From: Dictyoglomus thermophilum H-6-12 | Lineage (GTDB): Bacteria > Dictyoglomota > Dictyoglomia > Dictyoglomales > Dictyoglomaceae | DNA: 64,000 nt | Assembly: GCF_000020965.1 (NCBI RefSeq) | Contig: NC_011297.1 | Span: 1,522,525-1,586,524 of the forward strand | Direction: 5' to 3' | In this document: positions 43,322 through 60,954 of the stretch, one piece after another | How the letters are laid out: each line of letters opens with the position of its first letter | Numbering within the stretch: the first letter of the stretch is position 1 | Notes under the pieces: model-generated | Database searches by the model: none | What the model saw: only the letters and a program-made list of their open reading frames with translations | Told to the model about the DNA's origin: nothing | Program-made: the position numbers and the translations under genes

Positions 43322-44812
43322 TTAAGAAATAAAAGGATTTTCTTCAGGATACCTTTGGCCTTCAGGTAAGTTATAATATATTTCTTTTATTCCTAGCAAT
43401 TTTAATACCTCATATATGTATTTTCCTACATGTTTAAAGCCAACTGCTGTATGATGCGGAAATCTCTTTTCTAATAAAACATACCTATAGAATCGACCCA
43501 TCTCCTTTATCGCAAAGACGCCAATTCCTCCAAAGGATTTAGGATCTATATCTAAGATTTCACCCTCCGCAAGATAAGATATCAATTTTGCATCAGGAGT
43601 TGCATGAATTCTAAAAATTAGTGTTTCTCCAGGTCTCAATCTCCCTTCTAATGTTCCTCTTGTAATATCCGGCTCTTTTCCTGGTTCTAAGAGCCTATGC
43701 ATAATCAACTGATATTTAATAGCACCATTAATAAGACAACAAGAAGGTGTATTTCCACAATGAAATCCCATAAAAAGGTCTGTTGGTTTATAACCCTTTT
43801 CCTTTATTTTATCTTTATTTTCCTCTATCAAGTCATAAGGAACAGTATTATTAACATCAAGAAGGGTAGCTGGTACTTCACTTACATTGTAAATAATATA
43901 TTCACTGAGGGCCCCATAAACATCTACTTCACATGCTACTGGAATCCCTCTACTCGCAAGTCTTGAGTTAACATAGCAAGGGACAAAACCAAAATATTTT
44001 TCAAAGGCAGGCCAACATTTATTGGCAAATATACCAAACTGAGAAGCCCCCAAATTCTTCTCCATAAAATCAGTTAAAGCTATCTCATATTGAGCAAGTT
44101 TTCTTAAAAGTTCCGGATAGGTATTTCCTGTTCCAAGCTCTTTTGCCATATCCTCCATAACCTGTGGAATTCTAGGATCATTTTCTGCCTGCCTGTATAT
44201 ATCGTAAAGATCTAATTCGCTATTTTCCATTATGGAAATACCAAGGTCATACAAGGGTTTAATAGGAGTGTGCATAGTAACAAAATCTTGTGGCCTTGGT
44301 CCAAAGGAGAATATCTTCAAATTCTTTAGAGCAAGAACTGCCCTTGCAATAGGTATAAAATCTTTTATCATATCTGCTATCTCTGACGGAATTCCTACTG
44401 GATAATGAGGTATATATACATGCCTATTCCTTAAACCCAAATTATAACTCAAGCTTAAAAATCCACAATAAGCATCGCCTCTCCCACCATAAAGATCTTT
44501 ACCCGTTTCCTCTGCTGCAGCAACAGCCATCACAGGTCCATCAAACTTCTGGGCAAGGAGTGAAGTTGGACCTTCAGGGCCAAAATTACCAAGATATATT
44601 ACCAAAGCATTAACTTCTTTTTCTTTTATTTCTTTTAAAGCCTTTAATACGTCGTTTTCGTTCTCAATGATAGTTTCCAAATTAATAATAGGAATATTCT
44701 TCTTGACACACTCTTCCACAACCTTATTCCTTCTATTTCTTGAAAGATCAATAGGGAAACAGTCTCTACTCACCGCAATTATGCCTAATTTAACTTCAGG
44801 AACATTTTTCAT
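43322..44812 (-). CDS. FucI/AraA-type sugar isomerase, candidate L-arabinose isomerase
   Basis: The 496-residue protein is of the L-fucose isomerase-like fold. Metal-site candidates are Glu in CEVDVYGALSEY (about 294), Asp in ATLLDVNNT (about 317), and His in GFHCGNTP and PHHTAVGFKHVG. I start at ATG 44812, because the longer frame (44836) contains the GGGAGG ribosome binding site in its first codons. It lies between araD and the terminator, and no canonical AraA is in the window. An L-arabinose to L-ribulose role is inferred; fucose-like or D-arabinose substrates are alternatives. Confidence 0.75.
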   Translation of the reverse strand: MKNVPEVKLGIIAVSRDCFPIDLSRNRRNKVVEECVKKNIPIINLETIIENENDVLKALKEIKEKEVNALVIYLGNFGPEGPTSLLAQKFDGPVMAVAAAEETGKDLYGGRGDAYCGFLSLSYNLGLRNRHVYIPHYPVGIPSEIADMIKDFIPIARAVLALKNLKIFSFGPRPQDFVTMHTPIKPLYDLGISIMENSELDLYDIYRQAENDPRIPQVMEDMAKELGTGNTYPELLRKLAQYEIALTDFMEKNLGASQFGIFANKCWPAFEKYFGFVPCYVNSRLASRGIPVACEVDVYGALSEYIIYNVSEVPATLLDVNNTVPYDLIEENKDKIKEKGYKPTDLFMGFHCGNTPSCCLINGAIKYQLIMHRLLEPGKEPDITRGTLEGRLRPGETLIFRIHATPDAKLISYLAEGEILDIDPKSFGGIGVFAIKEMGRFYRYVLLEKRFPHHTAVGFKHVGKYIYEVLKLLGIKEIYYNLPEGQRYPEENPFIS

Positions 44813-44832
44813 TTTAATACACCTCCCATTTT

Positions 44833-45522
44833 TCATTTTTGTCCGTATATCTCATGAAATCTCGTATACCACTTTTCAATCTCGCTATCAGGAAGAGGCT
44901 CAGGTTTCCCTAAAGAAAGAGCAAAATAACAAGTCTTTGCTATTTCTTCCACCATAACTGCATATTTTAGAGCTTCGGTAGGCGTTCTTCCAAAGGTAAA
45001 TACTCCATGGTTCTTCAAAAGTACCACAGGTACAAAAGAAGAGTGTTTTTTAACCCAAGATGGCCTATCATCCTTATTTATAACTTCAAGAAGAGCATTT
45101 CCTACATCCTCAAGAGGTAGAGGAGATGCATACCTCCCTACAGGTATTTCTTCCCCAAAATAATCAGCATGAGAAGTAAGATATACAGGAATCGGCTTTC
45201 CAAGAAGGGCAAAGGCAGTAGCATAAGGAGAATGAGTGTGAACAATACCACCTATATCCTTTCTATTCCTATAAACTACTAAATGAGATAGGGTATCCAC
45301 AGAAGGTTGAAGCTCCCCTTCAACAATATTACCCTCGAGATCTACAATTACCATATTTTCTGGCGAAAGATTTTCATATTTTACTCCACTGGGTTTTATA
45401 ACCACATAATTAGTCTTTGGATCTCTACCGCTAACATTTCCACTGGTCATAACCACCAAATTATTTTTAGGAAGTTCCATATTCATTCTATAAACTTCTT
45501 CTCGCAACTCTTTCAAAAGCAT
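44833..45522 (-). CDS. araD: L-ribulose-5-phosphate 4-epimerase
   Basis: A class II aldolase/epimerase that converts L-ribulose 5-phosphate to D-xylulose 5-phosphate. The 229 residues include the phosphate-binding TSGNVSGRD and KPSGVKY segments, zinc ligands in VHTHSPYATAFA and a later His in LKNHGVFTFG, and a C-terminal Tyr/Glu region. Length and motif order fit AraD. It follows the GH51 gene by 6 bases and precedes the isomerase gene by 20. No kinase (AraB) is present in the window. Confidence 0.93.
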   Translation of the reverse strand: MLLKELREEVYRMNMELPKNNLVVMTSGNVSGRDPKTNYVVIKPSGVKYENLSPENMVIVDLEGNIVEGELQPSVDTLSHLVVYRNRKDIGGIVHTHSPYATAFALLGKPIPVYLTSHADYFGEEIPVGRYASPLPLEDVGNALLEVINKDDRPSWVKKHSSFVPVVLLKNHGVFTFGRTPTEALKYAVMVEEIAKTCYFALSLGKPEPLPDSEIEKWYTRFHEIYGQK

Positions 45523-45528
45523 ATTACC

Positions 45529-47088
<1,560 letters not shown>

Positions 47089-47093
47089 TCAAA

Positions 47094-48083
47094 TTAAGTT
47101 GACTCTCTAATTATCAATTTAGGCTCAAAAGTATGTTGTATAAAATTTTTATTCTCAGAATCCAACAATTCCAACAAAATTTTAGCAGCTTTAACTCCCA
47201 TCTCAAATCTAGAAATATCAATAGTAGTTAACGGTGGGTCTAAAAGTTCGGTATAATCCAAATTATCGCATCCTACAACAGCCATATCCTCGGGAATTCT
47301 TAACCCTATACTTTTTAAGACTTTGACCACTTCTAGAGCAATTGAATCACAAAAACAAAAAATTGCAGTAGGCCTATTTCTATTTGATAATACAGATTCC
47401 AAAATAGGCTTGACTTCCACATTAGGAGCTAAAGAATAGATAAACTTTGCATTTACTGAAAGACCTGCCTCTTTCAATGCCTCTTTATACCCCTCTAACC
47501 TTAGCTTAGCACTTGAACTTTTCCATGAATTAAGAAACAATATTTTTCTATGTCCCTTTTCAAGTAAATGTTCCGTGGCAATCTTTCCAACTTTAAAATC
47601 ATCGGCAACAACAAAATTTACATTACTCTCTTTAACTCGTCTTGCCACCAAAACAAAGGGTATTTGGTGTTCAATCAGATATTTGACATTTTCAGATTCA
47701 TACTCAACTGGGGCTAAAATTAACCCATCAACTCTCTGTTCTATCAAAGTTAAAATAGCCTCTCTCTCCTTTTTAGGATCCTCATTAGAATTATACAGAG
47801 CTAAAGTATATCCTCTAGAAGCTAAAACGCTTTCTATTCCTGTAACTACAGTAGCATAAAAGGGATTCAATAATGTAGTTATAACTATCCCTACTTTTTT
47901 AGTTTTTCCAGAAATAAGACTTCTTGCAAGAGAATTAGGGATATAGCCTAAACTCTTTGCTGCTTTCAAAACCCTCCTTCTAGTTGTAGGACTTACTTCT
48001 CCTTTATTATTAAGAACCCGAGATACGGTAGCTATACCCACTCCTGCAAGTTTAGCTACATCTCTTATAGTTACACGTTTCAT
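47094..48083 (-). CDS. LacI-family transcriptional regulator (arabinan cluster)
   Basis: The 329-residue protein has HTH RDVAKLAGVGIATVSRVLNNKG at the N-terminus, a canonical hinge helix (YIPNSLARSLISGKTKK), and a ligand-binding domain (GIVITTLLNPFYATVVTGIES, FVVADDFKVGKIATEHLL). Its promoter contains an ACTAAAATTTATACT site over the -10, so it may be autoregulated or controlled by the other LacI protein. It heads the operon with abfA, araD and the isomerase gene, and is likely an arabinose or arabino-oligosaccharide sensor. Confidence 0.92.
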   Translation of the reverse strand: MKRVTIRDVAKLAGVGIATVSRVLNNKGEVSPTTRRRVLKAAKSLGYIPNSLARSLISGKTKKVGIVITTLLNPFYATVVTGIESVLASRGYTLALYNSNEDPKKEREAILTLIEQRVDGLILAPVEYESENVKYLIEHQIPFVLVARRVKESNVNFVVADDFKVGKIATEHLLEKGHRKILFLNSWKSSSAKLRLEGYKEALKEAGLSVNAKFIYSLAPNVEVKPILESVLSNRNRPTAIFCFCDSIALEVVKVLKSIGLRIPEDMAVVGCDNLDYTELLDPPLTTIDISRFEMGVKAAKILLELLDSENKNFIQHTFEPKLIIREST

Positions 48084-48107
48084 TGGCCTCTCCCTATTCT
48101 ATTTTTT

Positions 48108-48122
48108 ACTAAAATTTATACT
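48108..48122. promoter_or_regulatory. Arabinan-set operator (site B)
   Basis: ACTAAAATTTATACT overlaps the -10 of the LacI promoter. It matches the palindrome at 56488 at 12 of 15 positions. Confidence 0.45.
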
Positions 48123-48143
48123 ATAAATTTATTTTGAATTCAA
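48115..48143 (-). promoter_or_regulatory. Promoter of the LacI/abfA/araD/isomerase operon
   Basis: On the minus strand TTGAAT (48143-48138) and TATAAA (48120-48115) are spaced by 17 bases. Confidence 0.55.
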
Positions 48144-55093: not shown

Positions 55094-56350
55094 TTACTTT
55101 TTTCCTGCCCAGTAATCTTCTATTATTGGCATAACTTCTTCTGCTGCCATCTCCATTGCTTTTTCTGGAGTTAATTTTCTTGTTATTAATACATCTTCTA
55201 AATAAGTTGCTATTGTATCTACTATTTCAGAAATATATGGGAACATTTGGAAAGTCTTCACATAAGGTAATTGTTGAGCTATTGTGTATATATATGGGAG
55301 TTTATCTTTTAATTCTTTACTTGTTGCTATAGATTTTCTTGCAGGTGTTTGTCCAGCCGCATACCATTCAATAGCATGATCCCAAAGATACTTCACCCAT
55401 GTCATAGCAGCCTTTAATACTTGTGGGTCTTCCACCATTACTTTCGGTAAAGCTAACACATGAGATCCACCAAATACTGCCCTATGAGTTCCAAATAGTG
55501 GCGCTGGTGCTGCTCCAAAATTCTCTTTCAAAACACCTTTCCAAGCCGTAGATGTCCATACTCCTGTAATTAATACACTTGATTGCCCACTCTCAAAAGC
55601 AGGCCCTGGATCTACAGAAGATTTAGGAAGATATCCTTTATCTTGAAAACTCATAAGAAGCCGTAATGCCTTTGCTCCCGCCTCCTGAAATGCCGGTTTC
55701 TTAAAGTCTGGAGTTAATAAATCTCCTCCAAATTGCCACATTAAATGTACCCACAACCAGCTCCAGGTAGGATTTTCATAGTACGGAGTAACACCTTTAG
55801 GAGTGACCTTTTTAAGTGCTTCCATTGCTTTTTCAAATTCAGCTCTAGTCCTTGGTGGTTTGTCAGGATCTAATCCTGCTTTTGCAAAATTTCCCCTATT
55901 ATATGCCATATAGAATATCCAACAATCTAAGGGAATTCCATATATCTTATCCCCATTTACAATTCCTTTGAGCAGTTCTGGATAAACATCCTTAATATCT
56001 ATCCCATATTGTTTCAATTCTTTTTCTGTAAAAGTTTTAAATTGATCTTGCTCAATAAAAAGAGGCATATCAGGTTTTCTTATAAACAAAACTTGCGGAG
56101 CTTGCTTTGTAGCAATTCCTGTGGATAACTTTGTTTTGTATTCCAAAGAATTTACTAAAACAAGGTGTACAACTTCTATATCAGGATGTTCTTTATTAAA
56201 GTTAGCAATAATTTTATCCATATAAGCTCCATCTGCTCCTCCAAGCGGTGTCATAAAGGTCAGAGTTATTTTCTTAGCCTGTCCCAAACTTATTACTATT
56301 AGAATCAGTAAACTTACTAACATGATTAAACTTAATTTTTTGATTCTCAT
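55094..56350 (-). CDS. Extracytoplasmic sugar-binding protein (SBP family 1, CUT1)
   Basis: The 418-residue protein has a signal peptide (residues about 1-25) and family 1 pattern: ITLTFMTPLGGADGAYMDKIIANFNKEHPDIEVV, GDKIYGIPLDCWIFYMAYN, and Trp-rich sugar-stacking regions. It probably delivers arabino-oligosaccharides to permeases 52773-51001. It is first in an operon with GH43, LamG, two permeases and the secreted GH51. A leader of over 100 bases holds two palindromes. Confidence 0.9.
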   Translation of the reverse strand: MRIKKLSLIMLVSLLILIVISLGQAKKITLTFMTPLGGADGAYMDKIIANFNKEHPDIEVVHLVLVNSLEYKTKLSTGIATKQAPQVLFIRKPDMPLFIEQDQFKTFTEKELKQYGIDIKDVYPELLKGIVNGDKIYGIPLDCWIFYMAYNRGNFAKAGLDPDKPPRTRAEFEKAMEALKKVTPKGVTPYYENPTWSWLWVHLMWQFGGDLLTPDFKKPAFQEAGAKALRLLMSFQDKGYLPKSSVDPGPAFESGQSSVLITGVWTSTAWKGVLKENFGAAPAPLFGTHRAVFGGSHVLALPKVMVEDPQVLKAAMTWVKYLWDHAIEWYAAGQTPARKSIATSKELKDKLPYIYTIAQQLPYVKTFQMFPYISEIVDTIATYLEDVLITRKLTPEKAMEMAAEEVMPIIEDYWAGKK

Positions 56351-56451: not shown

Positions 56452-56467
56452 CTGGAAAGGTTTCCAG
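56452..56467. promoter_or_regulatory. Perfect 16-bp operator-like palindrome
   Basis: CTGGAAAGGTTTCCAG has perfect 7-bp arms around GG, about 100 bases before the binding-protein start. It has the symmetry expected of a LacI-family operator but no central CG. Confidence 0.5.
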
Positions 56468-56487
56468 AAACACATAAAACAAAATTT

Positions 56488-56502
56488 ACTAAAATTTTTA
56501 GT
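56488..56502. promoter_or_regulatory. Arabinan-set operator (site A)
   Basis: ACTAAAATTTTTAGT is a perfect palindrome about one central T. Similar sequences occur at 48108 and 59800. Confidence 0.45.
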
Positions 56503-56561
56503 TTAATTTTAAATCAAAGGTATTTAGATTGTCAAGTATTTTTTAAAACCAAAACCAGTAA

Positions 56562-59707: not shown

Positions 59708-59799
59708 AAATAACCCTCCCCTTTGAGAAAATTTGGAAAAACTCAAATGAGATTCAAGAAGGTTTACAAAATTACTTTATCGCCCCCCTTAAAAATTTT

Positions 59800-59814
59800 A
59801 CTAGAAATTTCACT
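59800..59814. promoter_or_regulatory. Arabinan-set operator (site C)
   Basis: ACTAGAAATTTCACT contains the perfect GAAATTTC core. It lies on the predicted transcription start of the binding-protein operon, between that operon and the divergent LacI gene. Confidence 0.5.
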
Positions 59815-59818
59815 AAAT

Positions 59819-59847
59819 AATATAACACTAATAATTTTTAAAGTCAA
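59819..59847 (-). promoter_or_regulatory. Promoter of the second CUT1 importer operon
   Basis: On the minus strand TTGACT (59847-59842) and TATATT (59824-59819) are spaced by 17 bases. A second TTGACT lies 14 bases upstream in a short direct repeat. Confidence 0.6.
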
Positions 59848-59871: not shown

Positions 59872-59900
59872 TTGACTACTAATTAAAATAATTGTATATT
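59872..59900 (+). promoter_or_regulatory. Promoter of the LacI gene at 59944
   Basis: TTGACT (59872-59877) and TATATT (59895-59900) are spaced by 17 bases. AAGGTGAG precedes the ATG at 59944. Confidence 0.6.
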
Positions 59901-59943
59901 TTAAGTAAAATTTTAATAGTTCTGTTTTAAAAAGGTGAGAGTA

Positions 59944-60954
59944 ATGAAAAGAGAAAGTACAAAGAAAAAGGTTACATTAAAAGATATTGCAAAGGCTGCT
60001 GGTGTATCCGTATCGGCAGTCTCTTTCGCACTAAATAATAAAGGTTCCCTTAATCCTGAAACCAAAACAAGAATCTTGAAAATTGCTCAGGAACTTGGTT
60101 ATAGTCCTGAGAGAGAGATTAAAAAAACTTATACTATAGGACTTGTAATAAGCGATGTTACAAACCCCTTCTATCCAGCTGTGGTAATAGGGGTTGAGAG
60201 TGTCTTATTAAAACATGGATATAGCCTATTCTTATGCAATACTGATTACGACCCTGAGCTTGGATGCACCTCTATAAAAAGGTTTATAGATAGAAATGTA
60301 GATGGAGTAATAATAATGACTAACAGATTGGATGATTCAGTGATAGAACTTCTAAAATTGTACGAAATTCCTGTATTAGTCTTTGATAGAAATATAGAAG
60401 GTCTTGATGTTAGTGGGCTATTAGTAGATTTTCAATCAGGCATATCCGAAGCCGTTACCCATCTTGTTAACTTAGGACATACAGATATAGCCATAATTAC
60501 AGGTCCTCTTGATTTAGAAACAGCCCAAGCAAGACTCAGAGCCTTTAAAATGGCTCTTAAAAGATACAACATTGACTTACCCGAAGACAGGATCTTTGAA
60601 GGAGACTTTAAAATGAGAAGCGGCGAAGAAGCCATGAAAAAAATTCTAAAACTTGATCCAAGACCTACTGCTGTTTTTGCATCTAATGATATGATGGCTA
60701 TTGGTGCTTTAAGGGAGGCTCAAAACCAAGGAATAAGAATACCAGAAGATATGTCCATTGTGGGACTTGATGATATTATGATGGCCTCCTATGTCAATCC
60801 TCCCTTAACTACCGTAGTCTTTCCTCAACAAGAAGTAGGAACAAAGGCGGCAGAATTAATATTGAGAGCAATAGAAAAAGGAGAAAAAGCTGTATCTTAT
60901 ATCCATACTTACCTTGTAATTAGAAAATCTACAGGCCCTGCGCCAATTAAATAA
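59944..60954 (+). CDS. LacI-family regulator with a shortened hinge region
   Basis: The 336-residue protein has HTH TLKDIAKAAGVSVSAVSFALNNKG and a typical ligand-binding domain (GLVISDVTNPFYPAVVIGVES, TAVFASNDMMAIGALREA). Between them it reads GYSPEREIKKTYTIG. This is about five residues shorter than the other two LacI proteins here and lacks the P-N-x-x-A-x-x-L hinge helix whose leucine inserts at the central CG of classic operators. ATG 59944 is preferred over GTG 59935, which overlaps the ribosome binding site. It is divergent from the second CUT1 operon, its likely target. Confidence 0.9.
   Translation: MKRESTKKKVTLKDIAKAAGVSVSAVSFALNNKGSLNPETKTRILKIAQELGYSPEREIKKTYTIGLVISDVTNPFYPAVVIGVESVLLKHGYSLFLCNTDYDPELGCTSIKRFIDRNVDGVIIMTNRLDDSVIELLKLYEIPVLVFDRNIEGLDVSGLLVDFQSGISEAVTHLVNLGHTDIAIITGPLDLETAQARLRAFKMALKRYNIDLPEDRIFEGDFKMRSGEEAMKKILKLDPRPTAVFASNDMMAIGALREAQNQGIRIPEDMSIVGLDDIMMASYVNPPLTTVVFPQQEVGTKAAELILRAIEKGEKAVSYIHTYLVIRKSTGPAPIK

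What the first reader, a model, noticed from the sequence alone, without database searches (positions are those of the whole stretch)
59944..60954. LacI regulator without a hinge helix, next to operators without a central CG
Seen: residues between the HTH and ligand domains are about five shorter than in the other two LacI proteins, with no PNxxAxxL segment. Known: in LacI/PurR the hinge leucine inserts at the central CG. The palindromic sites in this cluster (56488, 48108, 59800) have no central CG, which would fit a hinge-less way of binding.
Basis: partly seen in the sequence, partly recalled or inferred. Interest (0 to 1): 0.55.

Follow-up and report, generated by a model that had tools for sequence, protein, structure and literature searches.

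The report
Arabinose repressor lacking the hinge helix
A sugar-gene repressor of the LacI family in a heat-loving bacterium lacks the helix its relatives use to pry DNA open, and the DNA sites it probably binds lack the CG step that this helix normally grips.

Summary
The LacI-family protein at 59944-60954 has 11 residues between HTH and sensor domain, against 16 in the window's other two LacI proteins, and no PNxxAxxL hinge. Six of six orthologues found lack the motif, so it is not a sequencing error.

The three noted sites are 21-bp elements: two TTTASTAAA 9-mers 12 bp apart, no central CG. Such sites recur in seven genomes at arabinofuranosidase-araD, transporter, araB and regulator promoters, mostly at or overlapping the -10 box. 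Likeliest: a hinge-less arabinose repressor (AraR). That this protein binds the sites is inferred, not shown.

The principle is not new: Francke et al. 2008 reported that EbgR-like LacI regulators lack the hinge Ala/Leu and use CG-less TTTASTAAA operators; the E. coli ebgR-ebgA gap carries the full 21-mer. New here is the same pairing in a protein without EbgR-like sequence hallmarks, though common origin with EbgR-like proteins is not rejected. A survey agrees: CG-centred palindromes lie upstream of 23 of 46 non-redundant hinge-bearing LacI genes and 1 of 19 hinge-less ones.

The parts
59944..60954 (+). Hinge-less LacI-family regulator, 336 aa (proposed AraR repressor of L-arabinose/arabinan use)
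   Evidence: PF00356 57 bits, PF13377 130 bits; orthologues in 6 of 7 genomes of its phylum, own included
59974..60108 (+). HTH domain (residues 11-55); recognition helix reads VSVSAVSFALN, F in place of the usual R
   Evidence: PF00356 match 11-55; alignment A1
60103..60135 (+). Shortened linker SPEREIKKTYT (residues 54-64), no hinge motif
   Evidence: AlphaFold2 coil at 51-63, block pLDDT 73; 47094 under the same procedure helix 51-58, block pLDDT only 60
59797..59817 (-). Operator of the divergent transporter operon, starts 1 bp after its -10 box
59819..59847 (-). Promoter TTGACT-N17-TATATT of the transporter operon
   Evidence: sequence; similar promoters in G003-G006
59872..59909 (+). Regulator's own promoter TTGACT-N17-TATATT followed at once by one operator 9-mer TTAAGTAAA (1 mismatch); possible autoregulation
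   Evidence: read from the sequence; aligned in G003 and G002
56485..56505 (-). Operator starting 0 bp after the -10 (TTGACA-N18-TAAAAT) before the 55094-56350 binding-protein gene; perfect ACTAAAA-T-TTTTAGT core
   Evidence: this copy was seen in the own genome only
48105..48125 (-). Operator overlapping the likely -10 of the 47094-LacI / arabinofuranosidase / araD operon
   Evidence: 18 of 21 site columns invariant in 7 genomes against 6 of 45 around it
47094..48083 (-). Second LacI regulator, normal hinge; rival binder of the 48105 site
45529..47064 (-). Arabinosylfuranosidase, regulon member
   Evidence: NCBIfam NF051901 745.7 bits, cut-off 625
44833..45522 (-). L-ribulose-5-phosphate 4-epimerase (araD), regulon member
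   Evidence: NCBIfam NF005123 285.8 bits, cut-off 251
43322..44836 (-). Isomerase-like protein (L-fucose isomerase C-terminal domain), possible arabinose isomerase
   Evidence: PF02952
56562..59707 (-). ABC sugar transporter (binding protein and two permeases), regulon member
   Evidence: binding protein PF01547; the two permeases judged by eye

Best explanation
59944 is a LacI-family repressor of arabinose and arabinan use (call it AraR) that works without a hinge helix. Its dimer recognises a 21-bp operator made of two TTTASTAAA 9-mers, 12 bp centre to centre, with A/T-rich triplets and never CG in the middle. Bound at or just after the -10 box, it blocks RNA polymerase at the arabinofuranosidase-araD, transporter and araB promoters and probably its own; a sugar ligand in the core domain releases it. 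Shown: the missing hinge motif, the conserved sites, the arabinose genes beside them, and the overlap with promoter-like sequences. Inferred: that this protein binds the sites, that it is a dimer spanning both 9-mers, that it represses, and that arabinose or a derivative is the inducer.
For: Hinge motif absent in 6 of 6 orthologues found. AlphaFold2 gives coil at 51-63 (block pLDDT 73) and gives 47094 a helix at 51-58 (block pLDDT 60). Of 10 places with <=1 mismatch to the 21-mer in 7 genomes, 8 are promoters of arabinose genes or of 59944; the other 2 are one spot in a coding gene shared by G005 and G006. Footprint in 7 genomes. Operator 0-1 bp after the best -10 at the 59944-divergent promoter in own, G003, G004, G005, G006 and at 56485; at the arabinofuranosidase promoter a -10 overlapping the operator is among the two best in 7 of 7. 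The site stays beside 59944 when the divergent gene is araB-like instead of the transporter (G005). 47094 has no close match in G004 (99% complete, best 41%), where two sites persist; the EbgR-like paralogue was found only in G000. 59944 is missing only from G001 (86% complete), whose syntenic contig ends in the third gene before it. No CG-centred palindrome above 3 of 6 pairs upstream of 6 orthologues.
Against: No binding or expression data. Genome-wide, <=2-mismatch sites are hardly enriched (50 against 37 for the reversed pattern, 7 genomes). No chance expectation was computed for the promoter fits; in G003 and G005 a -10 ending right at the arabinofuranosidase operator scores as well as the overlapping one, and at araB no good promoter was found. 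In G002 the place aligned with the 59797 site has 4 mismatches, and a 2-mismatch site lies about 275 bp upstream. One site lies at 47094's own gene and is kept in G001, where 59944 was not found. 59944's recognition helix differs from EbgR's although the operators match. Conservation at the arabinofuranosidase promoter is partly owed to the -10 box.
Confidence: 0.68

Rival explanations
1. The sites belong to the hinge-bearing LacI at 47094, and 59944 binds something else.
For: The 48105 site is about 20 bp upstream of the 47094 gene in four genomes (own, G001, G002, G003), and G001 is the one where 59944 was not found. 47094 also exists, elsewhere, in G005 and G006 and could act in trans.
Against: 47094 has no close match in G004, which keeps two sites; at its places in G005 and G006 no site with <=2 mismatches was found; in G002 and G003 its upstream region has a perfect CG-centred TAAAAACGTTTTTA, the sort of operator its hinge predicts (absent upstream of the other four orthologues).
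Confidence: 0.13
2. On geometry, compatible with the best explanation otherwise: each TTTASTAAA is a complete operator for one dimer, and the 12-bp pair is two operators in tandem rather than one 21-bp site.
For: EbgR-like operators in print are single 9-mers (PMC2329647 Table 3); single exact 9-mers precede several EbgR-like genes (L187, L188, L190), and EbgR-like pairs with <=1 mismatch occur at 11, 12, 13, 21 and 25 bp (1, 3, 1, 1, 1 cases). Three 9-mers in 12-bp register occur in G005 and G004.
Against: At the arabinofuranosidase promoter both 9-mers are kept in 7 genomes; a 12-bp step leaves little room for two dimers (inference). The constancy of 12 bp elsewhere is partly built into my search pattern.
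Confidence: 0.3
3. A shorter hinge (PEREIKKT) still folds to a helix on DNA and enters the minor groove at an A/T step.
For: Linker folding on DNA is known for LacI (recalled); G005/G006 have two more residues; pLDDT in the linker block is only 73.
Against: No Ala/Leu at the hinge positions; the same method predicts a helix in 47094, though at block pLDDT 60.
Confidence: 0.15
4. The sites are bound by the EbgR-like regulator of this genome (145.9 kb) or by an unrelated factor.
For: The sites match the 21-mer between E. coli ebgR and ebgA.
Against: The EbgR-like gene has no orthologue in the other 6 genomes (best 34-38% in five, none at E<=1e-45 in the 72%-complete G002), and these keep the sites.
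Confidence: 0.06

Closest known systems
EbgR-like LacI regulators (EbgR of E. coli; LacR, GalR, RafR of lactic acid bacteria), Francke et al. 2008, PMC2329647 (passages and section 7 read)
   Same: No hinge Ala/Leu, no central CG, operator core TTTASTAAA; E. coli ebgR-ebgA carries TTTAGTAAAAATTTTACTAAA and Klebsiella TTTAGTAAAAGTTTTACTAAA, the same 12-bp pair.
   Different: 59944 lacks the EbgR-like insertion before helix 3 and the recognition-helix Arg; its core is 22-33% identical to seven of them but 40-42% to four hinge-bearing paralogues; NCBIfam EbgR model 116.9 bits against a cut-off of 330. Not all EbgR-like loci show the 9-mer: an exact copy was in 10 of 14 fetched stretches.
CytR of E. 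coli (PMC3454398, passages read; Jorgensen 1998 seen only as a title in its reference list)
   Same: LacI-family member described as having a flexible, unstructured linker and relaxed half-site spacing, with direct repeats among its sites.
   Different: CytR acts with CRP; no CRP partner site was looked for here; operator sequence differs.
Canonical LacI/PurR/RbsR/CcpA
   Same: HTH and sensor domain; RbsR and PurR are the best NCBIfam matches (237 and 232 bits, under their cut-offs).
   Different: Hinge motif and CG-centred operator absent.

Membership tests
LacI/GalR family | LacI-type HTH plus periplasmic-binding-protein-like sensor domain | tested here: met
   PF00356 57 bits (cut-off 27), PF13377 130 bits (cut-off 26.5)
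LacI/GalR family, canonical (CcpA-like) members | Hinge helix with PNxxAxxL | tested here: not met
LacI/GalR family, canonical (CcpA-like) members | Even palindromic operator with central CG | tested here: not met
   0 of 16 listed sites hold CG (assuming 59944 binds them); no CG-centred palindrome above 3 of 6 pairs upstream of 6 orthologues
EbgR-like subfamily | Hinge Ala/Leu absent | tested here: met
EbgR-like subfamily | TTTASTAAA operator without central CG | tested here: met
   (assuming 59944 binds these sites)
EbgR-like subfamily | Insertion before helix 3 and Arg in the recognition helix | tested here: not met
   SFALNNKGSLNPETK in 59944 against, for example, SRVLNDDPTLNVKEETK in EbgR
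EbgR-like subfamily | Common descent of the core domain | tested here: inconclusive
   Seven EbgR-like rows form a 100/100 clade without 59944, yet AU does not reject 59944 with them (p 0.62, held-together tree even 7 log units better than the quick tree; p 0.44)
EbgR-like subfamily | NCBIfam EbgR equivalog score | tested here: not met
   116.9 bits, cut-off 330
CytR-type flexible-linker binding | Unstructured linker allowing variable half-site spacing | not testable with these tools
   spacing is 12 bp in the sites found, but the search pattern fixed it
L-arabinose repressor | Responds to L-arabinose | not testable with these tools
   regulon content only

The most novel reading that the evidence does not exclude
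59944 lost its hinge independently of the EbgR-like subfamily, and both lineages converged on the same TTTASTAAA pair at 12 bp although their recognition helices differ; losing the hinge would then by itself switch LacI regulators to a second, CG-free mode of operator recognition.
Probability: 0.3. Interest if true: 0.6.

Novelty: new variant of a known kind. Interest (0 to 1): 0.4.

Why it matters
LacI is the textbook example of a repressor whose hinge helices fold on DNA and open the central CG. A conserved, hinge-less relative with a defined regulon, and a hinge-bearing LacI in the same cluster as an internal control, makes the question 'what does the hinge do?' testable in a natural pair. 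It also adds a further case to the published link between missing hinge and missing CG, and a count over about a hundred genes that supports the link.

Tried and rejected
Sequencing error: rejected, the short linker recurs in 6 orthologues from separate assemblies. Chance sites: unlikely in the window and by gene context, though genome-wide counts at <=2 mismatches are near control level (50 against 37). EbgR-like paralogue as binder: rejected as the general explanation. Independent origin of hinge loss: not shown. For the other hinge-less, non-EbgR-like proteins (L040, L041, L097, L110, L112, L170, L179) no exact TTTASTAAA was found upstream; L040 has ATGTAATTTTACAT in its promoter spacer but its G006 relative L041 does not have it in the stretch held; L179 has a CG-centred AATTTTCGAAAATT, against the rule if it is truly hinge-less. 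A search of 290 genomes with the HTH-plus-linker profile listed over a hundred matches; of the loci it gave, I read the linkers of 22 of 24 (L161-L184) and saw only L170 and L179 without a hinge motif; the matches without a locus were not read. Solved structures: by names and titles alone no hinge-less LacI-DNA complex was recognised; linker lengths were not checked. Paper searches for a Dictyoglomus or LacI-type arabinose regulator and for hinge-less LacI or the operator string showed no report on this protein in the listings shown; several were capped.

Limits of the survey: loci were gathered by similarity to 59944 and to EbgR-like proteins, not at random; a pattern set hinge status and I overruled it by eye for L097, L135, L179 and L189 (to hinge-less) and L119-L124 and L162 (to hinge); L191 was missed by the script; genes with under 150 bp upstream were dropped. 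Upstream stretches were about 310 bp ending before the HTH (250 bp before the start codon for 59944). Of the six 59944 orthologues, four entered. 103 rows were collapsed to 65 at 65% identity. At the stricter 6-of-6 threshold the difference is not significant (8 of 46 against 1 of 19, p 0.26).

Full report
WHAT IS THERE. The ORF at 59935/59944-60954 encodes a LacI-family regulator: PF00356 at residues 11-55 and a sugar-binding sensor domain. The window lies at 1,522,525-1,586,524 of a 1.96-Mb single-contig genome with 11 LacI proteins. G002, a genome of the same genus, has a contig (C182, 4,505 bases) that agrees in length and in its 94% match with a public record titled uncultured Dictyoglomus sp., so I take the genus to be Dictyoglomus. 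Between the HTH and the sensor domain 59944 reads SPEREIKKTYT, 11 residues; the other two LacI proteins of the window have 16, and 9 of the genome's 11 keep P[NS]xxAxxL.

IT IS NOT AN ERROR. Orthologues were found in 6 of the 7 genomes held for the phylum, counting the own one; the other five are 82-96% identical to 59944. All six lack the hinge motif; two (G005, G006) have a linker two residues longer. The seventh genome, G001, is 86% complete, and its contig C115 ends inside the orthologue of 62942, the third gene from 59944 in the own genome, so the absence may be a gap in the assembly.

STRUCTURE. AlphaFold2 with a 38-row alignment gave mean pLDDT 91.8 and coil at residues 51-63. The same rows plus 47094, with 47094 as target, gave a helix at 51-58, the expected hinge. 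Confidence in both stretches is modest: the block 51-60 has pLDDT 73 in 59944 and 60 in 47094. Single-chain prediction says nothing of folding on DNA. Foldseek's best solved matches are RbsR, PurR and CcpA with operators.

THE SITES. Each fits TTTASTAAA-N3-TTTASTAAA with two mismatches; no other place in the window does, and shuffles give 0.06 (pattern written after the sites were seen). Over 7 genomes there are 10 places with at most one mismatch: 8 are promoters of arabinose genes or of 59944, 2 are the same spot inside one coding gene of G005 and G006. At two mismatches the excess is small: 50 places against 37 for the reversed pattern. The sites stand upstream of the arabinofuranosidase-araD operon (7 of 7 genomes), between 59944 and its divergent transporter or araB-like gene (own, G003-G006; in G002 the aligned place has 4 mismatches and a 2-mismatch site lies about 275 bp upstream), upstream of araB elsewhere (own, at 1,588,251, 1.7 kb beyond the window; G003; G001), and at 56485 (own only). 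By NCBIfam the arabinosylfuranosidase, araD and the own L-ribulokinase pass their cut-offs; the GH43 arabinanase-like protein is under its NCBIfam cut-off but over Pfam's. The araB-like genes of the other genomes were recognised by eye. In 16 listed sites no CG occurs; the central triplet is ATT, AAT, AAC, ATC or GTA.

CONSERVATION AND PROMOTER GEOMETRY. In the aligned arabinofuranosidase promoters of 7 genomes, 18 of 21 site columns are invariant against 6 of 45 others; the S of the first 9-mer swaps between C and G. Part of this block is the likely -10 box. At the promoter facing away from 59944 the operator starts 0-1 bp after the best-scoring -10 (TTGACW, 17-bp spacer) in own, G003, G004, G005 and G006, and 0 bp after it at 56485 (18-bp spacer). 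At the arabinofuranosidase promoter a -10 overlapping the operator is one of the two best in 7 of 7; in G003 and G005 one that ends right at the operator scores as well. No chance expectation was computed for these fits. The regulator's own promoter, read, has TTGACT-N17-TATATT followed at once by TTAAGTAAA. Such positions suit a repressor (inference). At araB no convincing promoter was found.

WHO BINDS. Three candidates exist in the own genome. The EbgR-like protein has no orthologue in the other six genomes (best 34-38% in five, nothing at E<=1e-45 in G002). 47094 has a normal hinge, no close match in G004 (99% complete; best 41%), and in G005 and G006 lies elsewhere, where no site with <=2 mismatches was found; in G002 and G003, not in the other four, it is preceded by a perfect CG-centred TAAAAACGTTTTTA. 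59944 is present in six genomes and keeps the site beside it when the divergent gene is araB-like instead of the transporter (G005). It is the best candidate; this is inference.

IS HINGE LOSS TIED TO LOSS OF CG? In about 250-310 bp upstream of LacI genes, CG-centred palindromes with at least 5 of 6 pairs were found in 42 of 78 hinge-bearing genes (10.3 expected from first-order random sequences), 1 of 14 EbgR-like (1.1 expected), 1 of 7 other hinge-less and 0 of 6 orthologues of 59944 (0.08 expected). Non-redundant: 23 of 46 against 1 of 19, Fisher p 0.0005; in AT-rich regions 13 of 31 against 1 of 17, p 0.009; at 6 of 6 pairs 8 of 46 against 1 of 19, p 0.26, not significant. An exact TTTASTAAA is upstream of 0 of 78 hinge-bearing and 11 of 25 hinge-less genes, the latter 8 EbgR-like and 3 orthologues of 59944. 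The sample was gathered by similarity and the classes were partly set by eye.

COMPARISON WITH WHAT IS KNOWN. Francke et al. 2008 (PMC2329647; passages and section 7 read) split LacI regulators into CcpA-like and EbgR-like, state that EbgR-like ones lack the hinge Ala and Leu and that this coincides with operators lacking the central CG, and list TTTASTAAA operators for LacR and GalR. Ravcheev et al. 2014 (PMC4052901; passages) report 1251 of 1303 LacI-TF motifs as even palindromes, 1173 with CG, and odd ones for 4%, such as LacR, GalR and EbgR. I found a perfect match to the 21-mer between ebgR and ebgA of E. coli, and again in Klebsiella. In 14 EbgR-like loci an exact 9-mer was present in 10; near-perfect pairs lay 12 bp apart in 3 cases and at 11, 13, 21 and 25 bp in one each.

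IS 59944 EBGR-LIKE? It lacks their insertion and recognition-helix Arg, scores 116.9 bits on the EbgR model whose cut-off is 330 while RbsR and PurR score 237 and 232, also under cut-off, and its core is closest to hinge-bearing Dictyoglomus-family paralogues (40-42%, against 22-33%). EbgR-like rows form a fully supported clade without it. But the AU test does not reject grouping them (p 0.62, the grouped tree scoring 7 log units better than the quick tree; p 0.44 with the careful tree), so one or two losses remain open. L040/L041, also without a hinge motif, group with nine hinge-bearing paralogues (95/85), which suggests a separate loss, though holding them with the EbgR-like rows and 59944 is only nearly rejected (p 0.06).

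VERDICT. A real, conserved, hinge-less LacI regulator, most likely a repressor, with a coherent arabinose regulon and CG-free sites; a new variant of a known kind.

Noticed in passing
window 56452-56467: CTGGAAAGGTTTCCAG, a palindrome with perfect 7-bp arms and GG in the centre, downstream of the 56485 operator in the same promoter; may be a site of another LacI-family regulator.
   Followed up: partly
L042 6022-6035 (G003) and L051 199-212 (G002): Perfect CG-centred palindrome TAAAAACGTTTTTA upstream of the hinge-bearing 47094 orthologues of two genomes, absent upstream of the other four.
   Followed up: partly
L047 6808-6840 (G005) and L049 6576-6608 (G004): Three operator-like 9-mers in a row at 12-bp steps before the arabinofuranosidase operon.
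   Followed up: no
G000:C1:145893-146882 (L010): EbgR-like LacI regulator found only in this genome of the seven; it might cross-bind the arabinose sites since the operator type is the same.
   Followed up: partly
G000:C1:1592065-1594941, just past the window: Open frames of 725 and 1082 residues that match the sensor domain of 59944 but not its HTH; similar ones in other genomes of the phylum.
   Followed up: no
   Followed up: partly
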